DNA of 64,000 bases, taken from assembly GCF_000711985.1 (NCBI RefSeq), contig NZ_JONU01000007.1, positions 372,001 through 436,000 of the forward strand, in the 5' to 3' direction. Shown in pieces: positions 1 through 33,981 of this stretch. A program made the position numbers and the translations under genes. Under the pieces are notes generated by a model. The model made no database searches. It saw nothing but the letters and a program-made list of their open reading frames with translations, and was not told the DNA's origin. Numbering within the stretch: the first letter of the stretch is position 1; every line of letters starts with the position of its first letter. Source of the DNA: Rheinheimera texasensis DSM 17496. Lineage in GTDB: Bacteria; Pseudomonadota; Gammaproteobacteria; Enterobacterales; Alteromonadaceae.

Positions 1-725
1 ATCGCAGTAAACCAGCCGAGCGAACCGACACAGCTAAAAAAACTGGTCAGCATCGTCAACCGCGGCCTGTTCCACAGCGCGACCAGCACTGTTCGGTCGC
101 GCAACAATAAATAGCCCAGTAGTAACAACGTCTGGCAGCTGATAACAAACAACAGCACCCAGGCAGCACCAAAAGGAAACGGCAACCCGAGCGCCAGACT
201 GGCTTCTCTGATCCACAAAGAAGTCAACGCAAAGGCCGCACCACAGGCGGCACCGATGGCGACGGTTTGCAGCGGCAGCTCGCGGACCGTTTTCACACCG
301 CTGAGTAAAAACACTGCCACTGCGCCAACCGCCACGCCAAGCCAGCCAAGCGGACTGAGTGCGCTGGCGAAAAACAACACGCCGAGCACGGCGGCGAAAA
401 TCGCTTCCGATTTTGCCAGACCAACCCCAATCGCGTAGTTTTTTTGCTTAAACAGCACCACCATCAATGCTGTTGCCAGAATTTGCATCAGCGACGCTGC
501 AAGCACATAAGCGGCAAAGCTGAGTGAAAACTGTGGGACTTCTGCCTGCTGGGCGGGTTCGGAGAGTGCATATAAAGCCCATAAATAAAGCGCCGCCAAA
601 GGACTGGCGTAGATAAAGCGCGCCAGCGTTACCCCCATCACCGCGACTTCTTTACTCAGTTCCTTTTGACAGGCATTACGCACCGCCTGCATTGACGCAG
701 CTAACAAGGTAAACAAAACCCACAT
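1..725 (-). CDS. EamA/DMT family transporter (partial)
   Basis: Integral membrane protein of the drug/metabolite transporter superfamily; substrate unknown. Translating the minus strand from the ATG at 725 gives a continuous hydrophobic frame beginning MWVLFTLLAASMQAVRNACQ, with several membrane segments and the typical EamA N-terminus (a short helix followed by polar residues). The frame runs off the start of the window, so about 241 residues are visible and the C-terminus is missing. Family assignment rests on overall pattern only. The neighbour on the other side of the 5' end is a tRNA-Pro gene on the opposite strand, so the gene is transcribed from its own promoter. No clear Shine-Dalgarno was identified. 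Confidence 0.8.
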   Translation of the reverse strand, partial: MWVLFTLLAASMQAVRNACQKELSKEVAVMGVTLARFIYASPLAALYLWALYALSEPAQQAEVPQFSLSFAAYVLAASLMQILATALMVVLFKQKNYAIGVGLAKSEAIFAAVLGVLFFASALSPLGWLGVAVGAVAVFLLSGVKTVRELPLQTVAIGAACGAAFALTSLWIREASLALGLPFPFGAAWVLLFVISCQTLLLLGYLLLRDRTVLVALWNRPRLTMLTSFFSCVGSLGWFTA

Positions 726-26881: not shown

Positions 26882-26911
26882 ACACAGCAGCCATCAGTGT
26901 TGCTGTGTTTT
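26882..26911 (+). terminator. Hairpin terminator after ydcH-like gene
   Basis: ACACAGCA (26882-26889) pairs with TGCTGTGT (26901-26908), followed by TTTTAC-type sequence. It overlaps the final codons of the convergent endonuclease I gene. Confidence 0.6.
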
Positions 26912-27841
26912 ACAATTTCCGGCCAATTGAAATCCTGCCGCTTCAGCCTCTGCAGCAGTGCCAAACTCGACCTGATTTGATGCTTTGATCAATACATAAC
27001 CACTGCAATGGCTGAAATGATATTTTTTACTATTTTTGTTGCCGCGCACTATGGACCGGTTTTGGTTAGCGCTTGGTGTTGATTGAAACAACTGCCGAAC
27101 TGTTGCACCGCTGTTAAGTTCAGCCTGATGCGACAGATAACCCGGATACCAGCGTTTAATGCCGCTGACAAATTCATTCTGATGGCCCATGTGTTGTGCG
27201 GTCCTGCGCATCAGAACCAGTTCGCGCTCGTCCACAGGGTCTTGCTGATGCCAGCGTAAAAACAACTGCTGTTCAGCATCTGACAGTTTCAGCTGATAGC
27301 GGTCAGCCATGTAAAAATAAATACGCGCAATGTCACCGCGGATCTCTGCACGCGGCTGAGCTAACTGCCGTCTAAAATCGATGCGAACCGGACAGGCTCC
27401 GTGTTGTGCTGGTGTTTCCGGCAATTCAGAGAAGCGAAAATGCGCCCTGTCGCCATTTACCTCACCCAATGCTGGTTTTAAATTAAATAAATTAGCCTCC
27501 ATCCGCCGAAATGTCTGATCCGTATCGCCGCATTGCTCGCGCCCCCCCTGTTGCCAGCAAGCCCTGCCCACTCCAAACTGCTGAGCCGGCACCACATGTT
27601 CCCATTCAATACGCTGCGCTCTGGGACCGTTTTTACGCACCTGATAACCACAGCTGCGCAAATCCGGCTGACCTTTGCCACCGACCCAACGGATTTGGCA
27701 ATTACAATAAAAGTCCGTCTGCTCATCACTGTAAATTTTCTGTGCAATACGCTTGGCTGCTTCAAAATCGGCCGGAACGGCCTGAATAATAAAAGGAAAT
27801 ACCATCAGCAAAAACATACAGAAACGTCGGACAAACAGCAC
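26894..27841 (-). CDS. endA: Endonuclease I (EndA/Dns family) with extra C-terminal Ada-like domain
   Basis: Secreted or periplasmic DNase of about 315 residues. After a hydrophobic signal segment (FCMFLLMVFPFIIQAVPA) comes the endonuclease I core: cysteines in FYCNCQI, the catalytic RIEWEHVVPAQQFG with its His-Val, and the EANLFNLKPALGEVNGDR segment. E. coli EndA is about 235 residues. The excess here is a C-terminal domain (last 50 or so residues) with the pattern GNKNSKKYHFSHCSGY...F.T..EA.AAGF..AGNC. This resembles the zinc-binding Ada N-domain-like module appended to other nucleases. The start is uncertain: GTG at 27841 has GAGG 6 bases upstream, GTG at 27853 is possible, and ATG 27817 is internal. 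Confidence 0.88.
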   Translation of the reverse strand: MLFVRRFCMFLLMVFPFIIQAVPADFEAAKRIAQKIYSDEQTDFYCNCQIRWVGGKGQPDLRSCGYQVRKNGPRAQRIEWEHVVPAQQFGVGRACWQQGGREQCGDTDQTFRRMEANLFNLKPALGEVNGDRAHFRFSELPETPAQHGACPVRIDFRRQLAQPRAEIRGDIARIYFYMADRYQLKLSDAEQQLFLRWHQQDPVDERELVLMRRTAQHMGHQNEFVSGIKRWYPGYLSHQAELNSGATVRQLFQSTPSANQNRSIVRGNKNSKKYHFSHCSGYVLIKASNQVEFGTAAEAEAAGFQLAGNCKTQQH

Positions 27842-27978
27842 AAACAACCTCACAACTTATGTTTGTAGCCCAAAGCGGCGAAACGACAGCATAACAGAAA
27901 GTTCTCGCTTTTTAAGCCTGTGGCTTTGACTTATACTTCGCCCTTTTGTGACCCGCCACATGGCAAAAGGAAGCTGGA

Positions 27979-29438: not shown

Positions 29439-29624
29439 TGGTCAGGCAATTTTTTGCCGTGTAGAATACACCCCAGTTCGGATGTAAAAAAAAGCGTGTC
29501 AGCATTTTTTACGGTTGCAAAACCCGCCTTTCTGACGCCGCAGTTTATTTTATTAAAAACAACAATTTGCAATTGTGGCAGGCTTTTTGCTAATCACAAG
29601 TGAATCGGACTTCGAGGTATTACG

Positions 29625-30488
29625 ATGAATCAGCAGAACGAAGCTCAACAAGCTCAAATGGATCAGCAGCCTGAGCGCAGTGCACAAAAAGCATTATCGC
29701 GCCGCAAGTTTTTGTTACAAGCCAGCGCGGTGTCAGTACCTGCAGTGCTTTCACTGCAAAGCGGTAAGGCATGGGGTTGTGTCGAATTAAACTGCACGCC
29801 AGGTGAGACAAGCCTGAGTAATTCAGGGTCTGCTGTTGCATCAGCAACGTCAGAAGACAAAAAGAATGCCTATGAGCGCCCGCAATGGTCGAGCCTCGAC
29901 GAAATTAAAAAAGCATTTTACGACGATTACGACTATTGGTTGCTGGATACTTTTAATACTGCATTGTGTACTTATGAAGAGAAAGGCAGCGGTAGAAATA
30001 AAAGGTACAAATACACAGCGCTCAAGTTTTCGAAGACGAAGTACAATGTTTGGTATAAGACCGTTGTGCAGCAAGCCTACGGTCCAGTTTGCGTGAACAA
30101 ACCGACAAATGATTTTGTCAGAGAAGCACCTGTTGCACCATCTGTGCGTATTCCCGGGTTTTATGAGAATGCGATTGAAGGTGTAAGCATAGTTCTTGAT
30201 AAAACGTCTGACGCCAGTAAAATCGTCCCTGAATTTTCTGGCAAAGTTGGTTCGATTATATATGGCCCAGAGACACCGCAGCAGTACGCACTTGCGGCTA
30301 TTATTGGTTCATTGTGGGAACGCCATCCTGAATACAGAAAACGGTTCTCAGCGAATCCTATTTGCTTCCCGGAACCAGATGTATTGATTAAAGCAGTCAG
30401 TAAGGCATGTAACGAGGTTGATCACAACGGTCGTAGCAAAATCCATGATATTGGTAGCCTCTTCAAACTGTATATGTCTCCACTCTGA
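29625..30488 (+). CDS. Tat-exported protein of unknown function
   Basis: 287 residues, not recognised. The N-terminus is Q-rich and hydrophilic, followed by a Tat signal: SRRKFLLQASAVSVPAVLSL, with the arginine pair at residues 26-27 and an h-region ending near GKAWG. The mature part begins with a two-cysteine stretch (GCVELNCTPGETS), then a mixed, tyrosine-rich domain (YERPQWSSLDEIKKAFYDDYDYW; GPVCVNKPTNDFV) with further cysteines near the end (NPICFPEP, SKACNEVD). Folding before export suggests a cofactor or a rapidly folding disulphide protein. GAGG is 7 bases upstream of the ATG. It precedes the HprK-like/nucleotidyltransferase operon but is separated from it by a strong hairpin. Base composition is more AT-rich than the flanks. 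Confidence 0.8.
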   Translation: MNQQNEAQQAQMDQQPERSAQKALSRRKFLLQASAVSVPAVLSLQSGKAWGCVELNCTPGETSLSNSGSAVASATSEDKKNAYERPQWSSLDEIKKAFYDDYDYWLLDTFNTALCTYEEKGSGRNKRYKYTALKFSKTKYNVWYKTVVQQAYGPVCVNKPTNDFVREAPVAPSVRIPGFYENAIEGVSIVLDKTSDASKIVPEFSGKVGSIIYGPETPQQYALAAIIGSLWERHPEYRKRFSANPICFPEPDVLIKAVSKACNEVDHNGRSKIHDIGSLFKLYMSPL

Positions 30489-30510
30489 TTTTGAAATCAG
30501 TACCGCAATA

Positions 30511-30563
30511 TGTAAAAGCACTACTCGGATTCGAGCTTGGATCCGATAGTGCTTTTGTTGTTT
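30511..30563 (+). terminator. Long hairpin terminator between the Tat protein and the HprK-like operon
   Basis: AAAAGCACTACTCGGAT (30511-30527) pairs with ATCCGATAGTGCTTTT (about 30540-30556), a 16-bp stem with one bulged base, then GTTGTTTTT. It separates the 29.6 kb gene from the downstream trio. Confidence 0.8.
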
Positions 30564-30572
30564 TTGATTGTC

Positions 30573-30601
30573 TGGACAACGCTGATAAAATCATTTTTAA
30601 T
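30573..30601 (+). promoter_or_regulatory. Candidate sigma70 promoter of the HprK-like operon
   Basis: TGGACA (30573-30578), 17-base spacer, TTTAAT (30596-30601), immediately after the upstream terminator and about 70 bases before the first gene. Confidence 0.45.
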
Positions 30602-30675
30602 CGCTGGACGCATACCACGGATGTAAAGACAGCCACCGAGGCTATTCCGTCAGGAGAGACAGAGTCAACCTTGAT

Positions 30676-31539
30676 ATGACCAGACCATTTGCGCTCGAAC
30701 TTGCTCCATTTAAATTTCTCATCAACACCAGCTCTAGCCACTTATATCACCAGCTCAGCGACCTCTATCCCTCTGAGATCCTGATTGCTGAGGAACTGAA
30801 CTCTATCTACGATTTTAAGGTCAGCTATAAAAGCCGCTTTTGGCAACCTGGTGGCAGTATGGCGTTTCAACTTGGTCACCAACACTTTAGGTATGCAGAC
30901 CCGTCACAGGCAGTGCCAATGTTCGAATGGGGTCTGAATTGGTGTGTGGCGACTTACCAAAGCCGTTTTTTGTGTATTCACGCAGCGGTGTTAGAGAAAA
31001 ACGGTGTTGCAGTGATCCTGCCCGCTCCACCCGGCTCCGGTAAAAGTACGCTTTGTGCGATGATGATGCTGCAAGGCTGGCGTTTATTGTCAGACGAACA
31101 TTGTATGGTTGATCCAGTGAGCGGTAACATTGTGCCGTGCGTACGCCCACTAAGCCTGAAAAACAATTCATTAGCTGTAATCAGTCGATTGTTTCCAGAT
31201 GTCAAATTATTTCAAAAAACGGAGAAAACGCACAAAGGCACCATGGCTTATCTTCAACCGACGGCAACTAGCTGGCAAAAACGTGAAGTGACAGCACGTC
31301 CGCGTTTGGTGATTTTCCCTAAATTTAATGCTGCAGCTCAGGACTTGTCAGGTTATGCGTTAACACAGTCGCAGCTGTTTATGCAGCTGGCCGTGAACAG
31401 CTTTAACTACAGCGTCATGGGTCAAACAGGATTTGATGCCCTTTGCCGGCTGAGTAGCTCCGTTGAGGGTTATTGCTTTGAATACAATGACGGCCAACTG
31501 GCAATAAATGAGATTGAGGCACTGTTAAATGAAGAGTGA
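30676..31539 (+). CDS. HPr kinase-related protein (HprK-related kinase A type)
   Basis: 287 residues resembling the C-terminal P-loop domain of HPr kinase/phosphorylase. After FLCIHAAVLEKNGVAVIL comes Walker A PAPPGSGKSTLCAMMM (residues 116-130), then GWRLLSDEHCMVD with the acidic residue expected to activate the substrate hydroxyl. The N-terminal half (1-95) is unlike classical HprK. No HPr or PTS gene is nearby. Such HprK relatives are known next to NTP_transf_5 nucleotidyltransferases in peptide- or polysaccharide-modification cassettes. Its substrate is therefore more likely a small molecule or peptide than HPr. The start is tentative: AGGAG at 30653 is far from the ATG at 30676, and a TTG at 30670 is possible. 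It overlaps the next gene by 11 bases. Confidence 0.8.
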   Translation: MTRPFALELAPFKFLINTSSSHLYHQLSDLYPSEILIAEELNSIYDFKVSYKSRFWQPGGSMAFQLGHQHFRYADPSQAVPMFEWGLNWCVATYQSRFLCIHAAVLEKNGVAVILPAPPGSGKSTLCAMMMLQGWRLLSDEHCMVDPVSGNIVPCVRPLSLKNNSLAVISRLFPDVKLFQKTEKTHKGTMAYLQPTATSWQKREVTARPRLVIFPKFNAAAQDLSGYALTQSQLFMQLAVNSFNYSVMGQTGFDALCRLSSSVEGYCFEYNDGQLAINEIEALLNEE

Positions 31540-32635
31540 ATGTATTGCCTTTGTCCGTGGCCCCGAGCTGTATTGTCAAAACGCCTCGATACAACAGTGG
31601 ACAGCTTTTATCGATGAAGCCAGGCAATATGCTCTGTTGGGGAGTTGTTATTTTCTTGCTCAGGATCACGATGTCTGGGCGAAGATCCCTACTGCCGTGC
31701 AGAATCACCTAGTCTCTGGTTATCATTACGCAGAAAAGCAAAAAATCACGCTACTAAACGAATTAATTGAGCTGGAAAAAATCTTTACAGACTCAGCTAT
31801 TCCTGCGTTATTAGTAAAAGGTGTTGCTTATCGGGTCGACGGTTATTCCCTCGCGCGCGGCCGGGTATTCTCAGATATCGATTTGTTAGTACCAGATAGT
31901 CATTTTGCGCAGGCGCTCGAAAAACTAAAAAACGCAGGTTACCTAGAGTTCAGCATGTCGGCGTATGACCGGCGCTACTACTTACGCTGGACGCACCAAC
32001 ATCCGCCACTGACCCACTTCCTCAGAGGTGCCAATATCGATTTACACCACCATATCTTTCCGGTGTCATCCCGTGAAAACATTAGGGTAGAGCCTATCGT
32101 CGAACAAGCGATCCCGCTGACGGATAGTGCGTTTTCGGTGCCAAGCCCCGCTCATCTGTTTATGCATGCCGCCGTGCATCTGTTCTATCAGGATGAAACC
32201 CATAAACTGGTGAAAGATCTGGTCGACTTATACCTGTTGTATCAAGAGGTGATAACGCGGCAACCTTTCAGTGACCTTGTCGCTGCCGCACAACAATCTA
32301 ACGCTCAGGCTGCAGTATTTTATGCACTGTCAACCTTACAACAAGTTTTTGCGATCCAACTTCCTGCTGAAGCCGGGCAGCTCGCACCTGCTGCAAGCCG
32401 ATACCGGACCTGGCAAATGCAATTTTTATTAACACATTTATTGGACCATACCAGCACCTGGCATCGTCCAGCACATTTTTTTTGGTTTGTGCGTGGCCAT
32501 CTGCTCAAAATGGGACCTTTGACCCTGTTATATCATTCTATTGCCAAATCGATTGAGCAATTCAAAGAGCGCCGTGAGCTTAGTAAAAAACAACAGCAGG
32601 CGGATGCCCATACCAGGCCTGGAGACGCACATTGA
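31529..32635 (+). CDS. Nucleotidyltransferase family protein (NTP_transf_5-like)
   Basis: 368 residues. The central part contains the nucleotidyltransferase fold signature: LLVKGVAYR, then RGRVFSDIDLLVPDS with the metal-binding DID at 116-118, and later a third acidic strand in ANIDLHHHIFP (around 169-180). C-terminal segments are helical (SPAHLFMHAAVHLFYQDETHKLVKDLVDLYLLY). This matches the PF14907 group of uncharacterised nucleotidyltransferases, which sit beside HprK-like kinases and glycosyltransferases. The target is unknown. Its start overlaps the upstream kinase gene and its stop overlaps the next start (TTGA), so all three genes are translationally coupled. Confidence 0.8.
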   Translation: MKSECIAFVRGPELYCQNASIQQWTAFIDEARQYALLGSCYFLAQDHDVWAKIPTAVQNHLVSGYHYAEKQKITLLNELIELEKIFTDSAIPALLVKGVAYRVDGYSLARGRVFSDIDLLVPDSHFAQALEKLKNAGYLEFSMSAYDRRYYLRWTHQHPPLTHFLRGANIDLHHHIFPVSSRENIRVEPIVEQAIPLTDSAFSVPSPAHLFMHAAVHLFYQDETHKLVKDLVDLYLLYQEVITRQPFSDLVAAAQQSNAQAAVFYALSTLQQVFAIQLPAEAGQLAPAASRYRTWQMQFLLTHLLDHTSTWHRPAHFFWFVRGHLLKMGPLTLLYHSIAKSIEQFKERRELSKKQQQADAHTRPGDAH

Positions 32636-33981
32636 ACAGAAACACCACCCTCCCTGCGATTTTAGTGGTTTGCAGTGCCCTGTTTCTGACACAGTGTGTT
32701 GCTCCAGCCATGTTGTTGGCTCCACAAAGCCAGTTGGTGTGGGCGTTACTCAAACCTATGGTTGGTCTTGATCCAAAAGAGGCCAATTTATTTAGACAAC
32801 CACTCATCCAATCCCGTCTGGAGCCTCTACTTGGCAGCCATTATGCCGGCGCAGTCCAGTTACTGGAAACCGCTGATAAAATCCAGCAGGAAGGCCCGCT
32901 GTTTTATGTTGTCTCCAAATATACTCCAGTACCAGAACTGGCTGAAAAAGCAGGTTTTGTCTGGAACTCCGAAACCAACCAAATGGCTGTTTTAATGGTA
33001 AGCGGCGGTGCTCCACAAATTTTTGCCGAAAAAATTAATAGCGAAATCGCTGAGCAAGTACCGACGTGGCCGGCCGAACTCAGTGATTACACAGATCCGG
33101 CAAAGTTAAAACAACAGGCTCTAGACCGAGCAAAACAACAAATCACTGACAAAGTGCCGGTGCCAGCAGCTATAGCGCCGGTTGCAGACAAAGTAGAGCA
33201 GCTAAAAAACCTGAAACAGCAAACCGAAACCCAGATTCAACAAACACAACAGACAGTTGCGGCGCAAGTATTGTCCCCGGTACATCAGGTAAAAGACCAA
33301 CTAGAGCAACAAGTCGGGCAAGTAAAAGAACAAGCCAAAGCGACTGTGGCACAACCGGTAAAAGCTGCACAGCAACAAGTGCAGCAATTACAACAAGAAA
33401 ACGAGACCACGCTGCAACAACCCATCAAACAGCTGCAGCAGCAAAGCGAACAACAACTGCAACAGACCAAAGATCAAGTGAAGCAGCTGCTCCCATCTGC
33501 GAAACCAGCTGCTGTTAGCACCGAGATTAAAAACGCTGTGCTGCCGGTCACGACAGACCAGGTAACGGGCCAAACAACAGCCCATGAAGCAGCAAAGGCT
33601 GCATTGACTTCACAAGTTTCTGCCAGTAATAGCGGTGCTGACGCTGTTGCCACAGACTTAAAAGAAGTGACAACGGCCGCGCAACAGCAAAAGCAAAGTG
33701 CCGCCGCAAAACTGTCGGAAAACACCTCGTTAACGGAAGCCGCAGCCCCAACACAAACAACGAACGACAGCGCTCCGGATGACGACTTAGCTGCAGAACT
33801 GGCAGCCGAACAACAAAGCCTTACAAGCAGTCCTGGCCTGAAAGTTCTGCAACTCCAACAAGATATTGCAGCAACCAGCCTTAAGTTGAGCCAAACCGAT
33901 AATGCTGCTGAAGCGTTGGCGCTGAAACACAAACTACAACAGCTACAGAACGAGCTTAAGCGGTTAACATCAGGCAAGTAA
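32632..33981 (+). CDS. Glutamine-rich exported (possibly lipo-) protein of unknown function
   Basis: About 449 residues. The N-terminus is signal-like (TTLPAILVVCSALFLTQC); the cysteine at about residue 22 could be lipidated, but LTQC is a poor lipobox. A globular part (residues about 25-165) follows. Then comes a long Gln/Lys/Ala-rich region predicted as coiled coil (about 185-290, with QQ-rich heptads such as QQQVQQLQQENETTLQQPIKQLQQQ-type stretches), a low-complexity Ala/Thr stretch and a final coiled coil. Start is TTG at 32632 overlapping the upstream TGA, with GGAG 7 bases before. No family is recognised. By position it is the envelope component of the kinase/nucleotidyltransferase system. 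Confidence 0.75.
   Translation: MNRNTTLPAILVVCSALFLTQCVAPAMLLAPQSQLVWALLKPMVGLDPKEANLFRQPLIQSRLEPLLGSHYAGAVQLLETADKIQQEGPLFYVVSKYTPVPELAEKAGFVWNSETNQMAVLMVSGGAPQIFAEKINSEIAEQVPTWPAELSDYTDPAKLKQQALDRAKQQITDKVPVPAAIAPVADKVEQLKNLKQQTETQIQQTQQTVAAQVLSPVHQVKDQLEQQVGQVKEQAKATVAQPVKAAQQQVQQLQQENETTLQQPIKQLQQQSEQQLQQTKDQVKQLLPSAKPAAVSTEIKNAVLPVTTDQVTGQTTAHEAAKAALTSQVSASNSGADAVATDLKEVTTAAQQQKQSAAAKLSENTSLTEAAAPTQTTNDSAPDDDLAAELAAEQQSLTSSPGLKVLQLQQDIAATSLKLSQTDNAAEALALKHKLQQLQNELKRLTSGK

What the first reader, a model, noticed from the sequence alone, without database searches (positions are those of the whole stretch)
29625..33981. Uncharacterised kinase/nucleotidyltransferase/envelope-protein cassette with a Tat-exported neighbour
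Three genes overlap end to start: an HprK-related P-loop kinase without HPr, a NTP_transf_5-like nucleotidyltransferase with a DID metal motif, and a Q-rich coiled-coil, possibly lipidated protein. A Tat-signal protein with several cysteines and no recognised family precedes them. Kinase plus nucleotidyltransferase pairs of this type are known in peptide- or glycan-modification cassettes, but the Q-rich envelope protein and the Tat protein look new as partners. A working idea is modification of a small molecule or exported peptide, with the Tat protein as product carrier or target. The region is more AT-rich than its flanks, which suggests acquisition.
Basis: partly seen in the sequence, partly recalled or inferred. 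Interest (0 to 1): 0.75.

Follow-up and report, generated by a model that had tools for sequence, protein, structure and literature searches.

The report
Tat-exported protein with dedicated modification cassette
This is a four-gene bacterial cassette that most likely attaches phosphate, and then a sugar or nucleotide, to a protein before that protein is exported folded, and it appears to be an undescribed branch of the PEP-CTERM/exopolysaccharide surface system.

Summary
The cassette is a Tat-signal protein (29625-30488), an overlooked 62-aa gene (30491-30679) where relatives carry a PqqD-type protein, an HprK-related kinase (30676-31539, TIGR04352 above cut-off) and an NTP_transf_5 nucleotidyltransferase (31529-32635). 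The Q-rich lipoprotein is a flanking gene, present in genus genomes without the cassette. Around related kinases, 103 of 110 loci have a Tat-family gene next to the enzymes; six misses are short contigs, the seventh has a 69-aa Tat peptide. None of 60 such proteins matches Pfam. Their constant part is signal plus a serine motif beside the cleavage site (two Ser in 59 of 60). The Tat gene carries the two-part activator/sigma-54 promoter described for PEP-CTERM genes. Exosortase is present in 20 of 20 kinase genomes of the order sample (38 of 177 others); in the genus PrsK is present in 10 of 10 against 0 of 12. Best reading: a leader-guided kinase and nucleotidyltransferase decorate serine(s) of the Tat protein before export, as in phosphoglycosylated lasso peptides, for the XrtA/exopolysaccharide surface. 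Linkage, promoter and motif are shown; the chemistry is inferred.

The parts
29497..29513 (+). Motif 1 of the PEP-CTERM promoter (TGTCAGCATTTTTTACG), predicted activator (PrsR) site
   Evidence: 10 of 11 scored positions; 62 nt upstream of the sigma-54 site; the only such pair on both strands of the window at the thresholds used; consensus seen in related loci; description in PMC1569441 section 7
29576..29591 (+). Sigma-54 (-24/-12) promoter TGGCAGGCTTTTTGCT of the Tat gene
   Evidence: 11 of 12 scored positions; >=9 in 70 of 98 loci (window included) against 3.3 expected by shuffling and 4 of 98 on the reverse strand
29625..30488 (+). Tat-signal protein, 287 aa; proposed substrate
   Evidence: RRKF plus hydrophobic core plus AWG; family beside the kinase in 103 of 110 loci; profile match of the window-type leader to the wide family 96.2%
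29793..29849 (+). Cys/Ser motif at the mature N-terminus (Tat residues 57-75, CTPGETSLSNSGSAVASAT); proposed acceptor serines
   Evidence: residues 52-75: 17 of 24 invariant in 5 genus proteins against 18 of 148 for residues 76-223; two serines 59 of 60 in the wide family; low-confidence, probably flexible, in the model of a relative. Which window serine corresponds is uncertain
30491..30679 (+). 62-aa gene (TTG start, ATGA overlap with the kinase) at the PqqD position; proposed shrunken leader-binding protein
   Evidence: codon-position changes 10/5/22, dN/dS 0.26 in frame against 1.13 and 1.71 in the other two frames; ORFs of 61-103 aa at the same place in relatives; sequence homology to PqqD not significant alone
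30676..31539 (+). HprK-related kinase A
   Evidence: TIGR04352 270.6 bits; H102, G120, G122, K123, S124, T125, D140, E141 in 108 of 108 aligned
31033..31050 (+). P-loop of the kinase (G120-T125)
31529..32635 (+). NTP_transf_5 nucleotidyltransferase
   Evidence: PF14907 137 bits; K97, G98, G111, R112, D116, D118, D233 in 107 of 107 aligned
31874..31882 (+). D116-x-D118 metal motif of the nucleotidyltransferase
32632..33981 (.). Q-rich lipoprotein gene (+ strand): flanking gene, NOT part of the cassette
   Evidence: strong homologue in 21 of 22 genus genomes; directly after sbcB in 11 of 12 kinase-negative genomes

Best explanation
The cassette is a dedicated modification-and-export pathway for one surface protein, and it belongs to the PEP-CTERM/exosortase regulon. 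Steps: (1) PrsK/PrsR with sigma-54 switch on the Tat gene and, through closely spaced and overlapping genes, the enzymes (promoter sequence shown; activation inferred). (2) The Tat signal peptide doubles as a RiPP-like leader that a small PqqD-type protein binds (PqqD-type genes shown in relatives; in the window only a 62-aa gene at the same place; binding inferred). (3) The HprK-related kinase phosphorylates one or more serines of the flexible Cys/Ser-rich tail just behind the signal (motif shown; reaction inferred). (4) The NTP_transf_5 enzyme adds a sugar or nucleotide to that phosphate, as reported for PsmN after PsmK in pseudomycoidin (inferred by precedent). (5) The Tat system exports the folded, already modified protein and signal peptidase leaves the decorated tail at the new N-terminus (inferred). 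(6) The product acts at the cell surface together with the XrtA exopolysaccharide/PEP-CTERM system (association shown; role inferred).
For: Linkage: Tat-family gene beside the enzymes in 103 of 110 loci, three of them in another arrangement (opposite strand, downstream); NTase within 5 kb in 109 of 110; PqqD-type gene by profile in 71 of 110, plus small ORFs at the same place in 25 of the other 39 by my reading. Phylogenetic profile in the order sample: leader-bearing Tat matches in 18 of 20 kinase genomes (the other two, window and G098, show the gene on direct reading) and in none of the 177 others, two of which match only the mature-domain part. Motif: Ser61 and Ser65 in 59 of 60, as constant as the twin arginines (58, 59), in a low-pLDDT segment before a confident domain. 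The window-type and wide Tat families share by profile only signal and first Cys (96.2%, window 18-57), as expected if the leader is what the machinery reads. One below-cut-off relative of the kinase (L024), beside a 114-aa Tat ORF, carries a PqqD domain above the Pfam cut-off; in another (L126) the PqqD match is weak, E 0.028. Catalytic residues intact. Precedent: lasso peptides use PqqD-type B1, an HprK-type kinase and a nucleotidyltransferase to phosphorylate and hexosylate a Ser (passages read). Regulon: two-part promoter upstream of the Tat gene here and in relatives and of 4 of 4 over-cut-off PEP-CTERM genes of this genome. Co-occurrence: exosortase in 20 of 20 kinase genomes against 38 of 177 others; PrsK in 10 of 10 against 0 of 12 in the genus.
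Against: No modification, binding or export has been measured. The 62-aa gene does not match PqqD on its own (hhalign 4% to PqqD; 38.6% to the intermediate group, which itself reaches only 30%), so step 2 may be lost or done otherwise in this genome. In 10 of 110 loci with some room (L028, L044, L087, L089, L092, L110, L114, L117, L121, L140) one search showed no convincing PqqD-type ORF; in some the kinase start may have been called too far upstream. Exosortase was not detected in 2 of 10 cassette genomes of the genus (G206, G209; both have PrsK). Strong exosortases (>=200 bits, my threshold) occur without the cassette in 7 of 27 order genomes, so the cassette is an accessory. PrsR itself was not searched for. 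The co-occurrence tests ignore relatedness of genomes. The window's Tat signal did not reach the curated TIGR01409 model, nor did 59 of 60 relatives at E 0.01. Fold comparison could not be run.
Confidence: 0.62

Rival explanations
1. Cofactor-loading rival: kinase and nucleotidyltransferase make or attach a nucleotide-like cofactor (phosphodiester-linked to Ser/Thr, as flavinylation does), and the Tat protein is exported folded because it carries that cofactor and works as a periplasmic enzyme.
For: Tat is the usual route for cofactor-bearing proteins (general knowledge). An invariant serine motif and a confident compact domain in the model also fit.
Against: No profile similarity between the mature domains of the window type and the wide family; the proposed acceptor motif lies in a low-confidence tail outside the folded domain. 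No Pfam family, redox or other, matched the 60 relatives.
Confidence: 0.15
2. Small-molecule rival: the two enzymes build an activated phospho-sugar used by the XrtA exopolysaccharide locus, and the Tat protein is a periplasmic binding or transfer protein for it, not their substrate.
For: Association with XrtA-type genes; PF14907 is an uncharacterised nucleotidyltransferase.
Against: PqqD-type proteins are leader-peptide chaperones in RiPP systems, and a kinase relative carries a PqqD domain (L024). Relatives pair kinase and NTase with 61-69 aa Tat peptides, which seem too small for such a role. The conserved part of the Tat protein is leader and tail, not a binding domain.
Confidence: 0.12
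3. Regulatory rival: an HPr-kinase-like switch that senses metabolic state and controls PEP-CTERM or exopolysaccharide output.
For: HprK ancestry of the fold (TIGR00679 weak match; 1ko7 E 0.39) and a sigma-54 regulon promoter.
Against: Below the HPr kinase family cut-offs (14.1 against 240; Pfam 12.7 against 33.3). The constant partner is a Tat-signal protein.
Confidence: 0.06
4. One reading: kinase, nucleotidyltransferase and Q-rich lipoprotein act together as an envelope cassette.
For: Overlapping reading frames in the window.
Against: Strong Q-rich homologues in 11 of 12 kinase-negative genus genomes, directly after sbcB in those 11; about 7 kb apart from the NTase in five cassette genomes (L187-L191).
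Confidence: 0.03

Closest known systems
HPr-rel-A system of NCBIfam (TIGR04352 kinase, TIGR04353 PqqD family peptide chaperone)
   Same: The window kinase is a member above cut-off; relatives carry TIGR04353 proteins beside it.
   Different: The model names that I saw record only kinase and chaperone. The Tat substrate family, the short window partner, the PEP-CTERM promoter and the exosortase tie come from this work; 'HprK-related kinase', 'HPr-rel-A system' and 'TIGR04352' each gave 0 papers in the held library.
Phosphorylated and phosphoglycosylated lasso peptides (paeninodin, pseudomycoidin)
   Same: HprK-type kinase, nucleotidyltransferase and PqqD-type leader-binding protein acting on a Ser of a ribosomal precursor (reviews PMC9266682 and PMC8498205, passages read).
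   Different: No B2 peptidase or lasso cyclase among the neighbours scanned; the precursor is a ~200-300 aa Tat protein; the proposed site lies at the mature N-terminus, not at the C-terminus; export by Tat instead of a dedicated transporter. Whether lasso NTases belong to PF14907 was not tested.
PEP-CTERM/exosortase A (XrtA) system
   Same: Same kind of two-part promoter, same genomes, often the same neighbourhood.
   Different: The Tat protein has no PEP-CTERM tail and uses a Tat signal; the cassette is an accessory and in this genome lies about 230 kb from the xrtA locus.
SynChlorMet cassette (ScmC HprK-like, ScmD PqqD-like)
   Same: HprK-like and PqqD-like proteins (weak cross-matches).
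   Different: A radical-SAM system without nucleotidyltransferase or Tat protein (all recalled, not tested).
HPr kinase/phosphorylase (HprK)
   Same: P-loop and catalytic region related.
   Different: Far below family cut-offs; partner is a Tat-signal protein.

Membership tests
HPr-rel-A system | kinase above TIGR04352 cut-off | tested here: met
   270.6 against 200 bits
HPr-rel-A system | TIGR04353 PqqD family chaperone beside the kinase | tested here: inconclusive
   Window 62-aa gene: no match; position and coding signal fit; of ten small proteins scanned L034, L062, L071 exceed the cut-off
NTP_transf_5 (PF14907) | Pfam gathering score and DxD motif | tested here: met
   137 against 31.2 bits; D116, D118 in 107 of 107
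Tat substrates | twin-arginine signal | tested here: met
   SRRKF, hydrophobic core, AWG in the window by sequence. The curated TIGR01409 model was not reached. In the alignment of 99 relatives a basic pair was required by the script, so its presence there is no independent test
Tat substrates | export by TatABC | not testable with these tools
   needs experiment
Lasso peptide clusters | B2 transglutaminase-like peptidase and C cyclase next to the precursor | tested here: not met
   Eight proteins scanned: the four reported genes, exonuclease I, endonuclease I, YebG, a patatin-like protein; genes further away in the window were not scanned
RiPP with leader-guided modification | leader binding and modification of the precursor | not testable with these tools
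   supported indirectly by leader conservation and a PqqD domain on a kinase relative
PEP-CTERM proteins | C-terminal PEP-CTERM signal | tested here: not met
   Tat protein ends ...LFKLYMSPL; no PF07589 match in the Pfam scan
PEP-CTERM regulon | motif 1 plus sigma-54 site at the described spacing upstream of the gene | tested here: met
   10/11 and 11/12 with spacer 62; such a pair at 4 of 4 over-cut-off PEP-CTERM genes of the genome
HPr kinase/phosphorylase | TIGR00679 or PF07475 cut-off | tested here: not met
   14.1 against 240; 12.7 against 33.3

The most novel reading that the evidence does not exclude
A new class of post-translationally modified, Tat-exported proteins and peptides, in which the twin-arginine signal is also the leader read by a PqqD-type protein and a serine beside the cleavage site receives phosphate plus sugar or nucleotide in the cytoplasm. 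The decorated N-terminus of the exported protein then ties it to the XrtA exopolysaccharide, or even takes part in the still unknown acceptor chemistry of PEP-CTERM proteins in those species that have it. Relatives with 61-69 aa Tat peptides and longer, PqqD-like-extended kinases would be true Tat-exported RiPPs.
Probability: 0.3. Interest if true: 0.86.

Novelty: new variant of a known kind. Interest (0 to 1): 0.72.

Why it matters
If right, a sorting signal (Tat) doubles as a biosynthetic leader, and a folded protein is chemically decorated before export; my searches of the held library found no paper on this. It gives the HPr-rel-A kinase a concrete, testable substrate, and adds a regulated accessory arm to the PEP-CTERM/exosortase system, whose periplasmic acceptor was called unknown in the founding paper (PMC1569441, figure legend shown). 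The test is simple: one operon, one protein, one mass spectrum.

Tried and rejected
Rejected: Q-rich lipoprotein as a cassette member; genes between NTase and Q-rich gene in five genus genomes as part of the system (about 7 kb; read in full in L188 and L190 and by their first residues in L189 and L191, not read in L187; I recognised thiamine biosynthesis by eye, no family scan); HPr regulation; a lasso cluster beside the cassette. A first filter for Tat signals by a 14-residue hydrophobic run was too strict (45 of 110) and was replaced by a profile (E below 0.01). That profile was trained on cluster members from these loci, so most of its 100 hits are by construction; its value lies in the proteins outside the training set and in the position of the genes. 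The hit in L083 is a 40-residue end fragment at a contig edge. In the motif alignment (99 of 110 loci) L040 and L069 were cut at a wrong basic pair and count against the motif. L027 and L142 are the same contig; L033 and L034 are near copies. Fisher tests ignore relatedness. Sequence search of solved structures gave nothing for Tat family and NTase. Homology of the 62-aa gene to PqqD could not be shown by profile alone.

Not finished: the fold comparison of the Tat model and a model of the window's own Tat protein (tools busy or switched off).

Full report
WHAT IS THERE. The ORFs exist as described. The kinase belongs to TIGR04352, HprK-related kinase A (270.6 bits, cut-off 200). The next gene is PF14907, NTP_transf_5 (137 bits, cut-off 31.2). 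The Tat protein has no Pfam match at E 1, the Q-rich protein none above cut-off. Between Tat gene and kinase lies a 62-aa ORF (30491-30679) whose stop overlaps the kinase start as ATGA. Compared with relative L027 (kinase 78% identical) it shows changes by codon position of 10/5/22 and dN/dS 0.26 in frame, against 1.13 and 1.71 in the other frames (only 43.5 synonymous sites, so a modest test). I take it as a gene.

THE Q-RICH GENE IS A NEIGHBOUR. In the genus, 10 of 22 genomes have the kinase, but 22 of 22 have a Q-rich match (21 strong, E 3e-44 or better; G210 only E 4e-5). In 11 of the 12 kinase-negative genomes it lies directly after sbcB; in the fetched stretch of the twelfth (G210) none of the tested neighbours was found. 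The cassette therefore sits between sbcB and the Q-rich gene. In five genus genomes (L187-L191) about 7 kb of other genes also lie in between; those read in L188 and L190 look like thiamine biosynthesis by eye.

THE CASSETTE IS EXCHANGED AS A UNIT. Against relative G206 (L139) the window is 86.3% identical in DNA up to 29468 and resumes at 32695 (80.5%), then 87.3% from 34069. In between only a 131-bp stretch in the kinase matches (69%). Proteins outside are 74-100% identical, inside 38% (kinase) and 29% (NTase), with no Tat match at E 1e-5. Another version occupies the same site.

THE CONSTANT PARTNER IS A TAT PROTEIN. I collected 110 loci around the kinase: the window, 80 of the 110 relatives that one search confirmed (its output cap), 20 from the order and 9 from the genus. 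By plain BLAST clustering 87 of the first 101 share one Tat-protein group. By profile a Tat-family protein lies on the same strand upstream in 100 of 110 (profile partly trained on these loci; in 96 its end is within 500 nt of the kinase start, in L042, L045, L061 and L088 at 553-690 nt). In three Sedimenticola-type loci (L039, L062, L073) it lies downstream on the opposite strand. The other seven: L032, L046, L053 and L099 have no room on the contig; L027 and L142 are one short contig that holds the end of a window-type Tat gene; L126, below the kinase cut-off, has a 69-aa Tat peptide. The NTase is found in 109 of 110 (miss L072). A PqqD-type gene is found by profile in 71 of 110. Of the other 39, by my reading, 25 have an ORF of 61-103 aa at the same place, 10 show none that convinces, three have no room, and L126 has the Tat peptide there. 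Of ten small proteins scanned, three exceed the TIGR04353 cut-off, one is just below (L108, 29.6 against 35), and the window's does not match. A group of eight diverged full-length ones matches the PqqD profile at 97.3%, an intermediate group at 30%, the window group at 4%: homology of the window gene rests on position and a remaining hairpin-like segment. A profile of 60 Tat proteins matches 20 of 197 order genomes; 18 are kinase genomes, and the other two (G016, G173) match only profile positions 75-173, in other proteins. The two kinase genomes missed by the profile (window, G098) have the Tat gene next to the kinase.

ANATOMY OF THE TAT PROTEIN. In the 60-protein alignment Ser61 and Ser65 are present in 59, the twin arginines in 58 and 59, Cys58 in 57. 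The motif reads C-x-x-S-x-x-x-S-G-N-x-S just behind the signal, followed by a C-x-G-x-S-P-G-Y-W-K domain. The AlphaFold model of relative L106 is unsure (pLDDT block means 44-66) for residues 1-80 and confident (86-97) for 81-190: probably a flexible tail before a compact, mainly helical domain. A similar SPGYWK-type domain occurs in two large surface-protein-like ORFs (L222, L207). Window-type Tat proteins share with this family, by profile, only signal and first Cys (96.2% probability, window 18-57). Among five window-type proteins, residues 52-75 are 17 of 24 invariant and 76-223 are 18 of 148. A constant leader and tail with an exchangeable domain is what a leader-reading modification system would leave. 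No Pfam family matched any of the 60 at E 0.01; two NCBIfam models matched one member each, one of them the general Tat signal model.

ENZYMES. Both look active: in 108 aligned kinases H102, G120, G122, K123, S124, T125, D140 and E141 are invariant, and in 107 aligned NTases K97, G98, Y101, G111, R112, D116, D118 and D233. In lasso peptides an HprK-type kinase phosphorylates a Ser of the precursor, a nucleotidyltransferase is needed for hexoses on that phosphate, and a PqqD-type B1 binds the leader (reviews PMC9266682 and PMC8498205, passages read; the review notes that a host glycosyltransferase after nucleotidylation is not excluded; the primary papers were not held). Of the five below-cut-off kinases of the order, three (L021/L126, L025, L024) have a short Tat ORF of 61-114 aa directly upstream. 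L126 and L025 are longer kinases (391, 394 aa) followed by a PF14907 NTase; their extra N-terminal part looks PqqD-like to me, but TIGR04353 gives only E 0.028 in L126 and nothing in L025. L024 carries a C-terminal PqqD domain above cut-off (35.3 against 23.4). L022 and L023 show no Tat ORF within 1.5 kb.

REGULON. Upstream of the Tat gene there is a sigma-54 site (29576-29591) and, 62 nt before it, a 17-nt motif ending TTTACG (29497-29513). A 2006 paper described such a pair, a 17-nt motif ending TTTACA, a spacer of 62.8 nt on average and a -24/-12 site, upstream of proteobacterial PEP-CTERM genes, and tied it to PrsK/PrsR (PMC1569441: section 7 read whole; passages). In 98 loci with enough upstream DNA (window included) the sigma-54 site scores >=9 of 12 in 70 (3.3 expected by shuffling; 4 of 98 on the reverse strand). 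TTTACA lies 32-95 nt upstream in 46 of those 70 (1.8 expected), at spacers clustered near 62, 72-75, 82-86 and 94-95. Thirteen loci have no -24/-12 match at all. The pair occurs once in the 64-kb window at the thresholds used. Of eight PEP-CTERM candidates in this genome, the four above cut-off all carry the pair (spacers 82, 63, 62, 54; looser thresholds, best of several possible starts for two of them); one weak candidate (L230) carries a weaker pair; L229 and L232 have none, and L231 gives only a poor one for one of two ORFs. Background at loose thresholds: 5 of 364 tiles of the window, the Tat site not removed.

TIE TO THE EXOSORTASE SYSTEM. Of ten representatives of recurring neighbour groups, seven match XrtA/PEP-CTERM exopolysaccharide families (one just below its cut-off). 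In the order sample, 20 of 20 kinase genomes have an exosortase (PF09721) above cut-off against 38 of 177 others; for strong ones (>=200 bits, my threshold) 20 of 20 against 7 of 177. In the genus, exosortase is found in 8 of 10 cassette genomes and 0 of 12 others, and PrsK above cut-off in 10 of 10 and 0 of 12 (in G213 a partial match). Relatedness is not corrected for; PrsR was not searched. The window's genome has an XrtA locus about 230 kb away: 9 of 10 proteins scanned exceed XrtA/PEP-CTERM cut-offs, exosortase A at 314.9 against 208 bits.

READING. The Tat protein is most likely the substrate: constant neighbour, constant leader, constant serines, enzymes with precedent. The order of reactions and the nature of the second group are inferred from pseudomycoidin. 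The surface role is inferred from promoter and co-occurrence. Because exosortases occur without the cassette, the cassette is an optional arm.

LITERATURE. Searches for 'HprK-related kinase', 'HPr-rel-A system' and 'TIGR04352' returned no paper. PqqD/HprK/nucleotidyltransferase/twin-arginine (three of four) returned one paper that looked unrelated from its listing, exosortase/PqqD/kinase/Tat signal (three of four) likewise one. HPr kinase with PEP-CTERM and nucleotidyltransferase gave none, RiPP recognition element with twin-arginine and kinase none. Of 47 papers on PEP-CTERM/EpsH (20 listed) I looked into two: PMC1569441 and PMC9850573 (term search), which mentions PrsK but not PqqD, HPr, nucleotidyltransferase or twin-arginine. 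The library lacks most subscription papers.

Noticed in passing
26894-27853 (- strand): Endonuclease I-like protein with a C-terminal sunset domain (NF051437, 29.2 bits against 27).
   Followed up: no
L126:7407-9942; L025:728-3341; L024:851-2463: Short Tat ORFs (61-114 aa) directly before HprK-like kinases; L024 kinase has a C-terminal PqqD domain above cut-off, L126 and L025 kinases have an N-terminal part that looks PqqD-like (weak or no match) and are followed by a PF14907 NTase: candidate Tat-exported RiPPs.
   Followed up: partly
L139 against window 29469-32694: Replacement of the whole cassette between genomes that are 86-87% identical in DNA on both sides.
   Followed up: partly
L222, L207: The SPGYWK-type domain of the Tat family also occurs in large surface-protein-like ORFs.
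   Followed up: partly
neighbours of 34 of 101 loci, median 2.6 kb upstream of the kinase: A secreted-protease-like group (cluster 8; weak MarP/HtrA matches below cut-off) recurs near the cassette; possible processing enzyme.
   Followed up: no
L223:17114-19000: The XrtA amidotransferase (TIGR03108, 948.7 bits) also scores 274 bits, below cut-off, to a lasso cyclase model.
   Followed up: no
L089: Two Tat-family genes upstream of one kinase.
   Followed up: no
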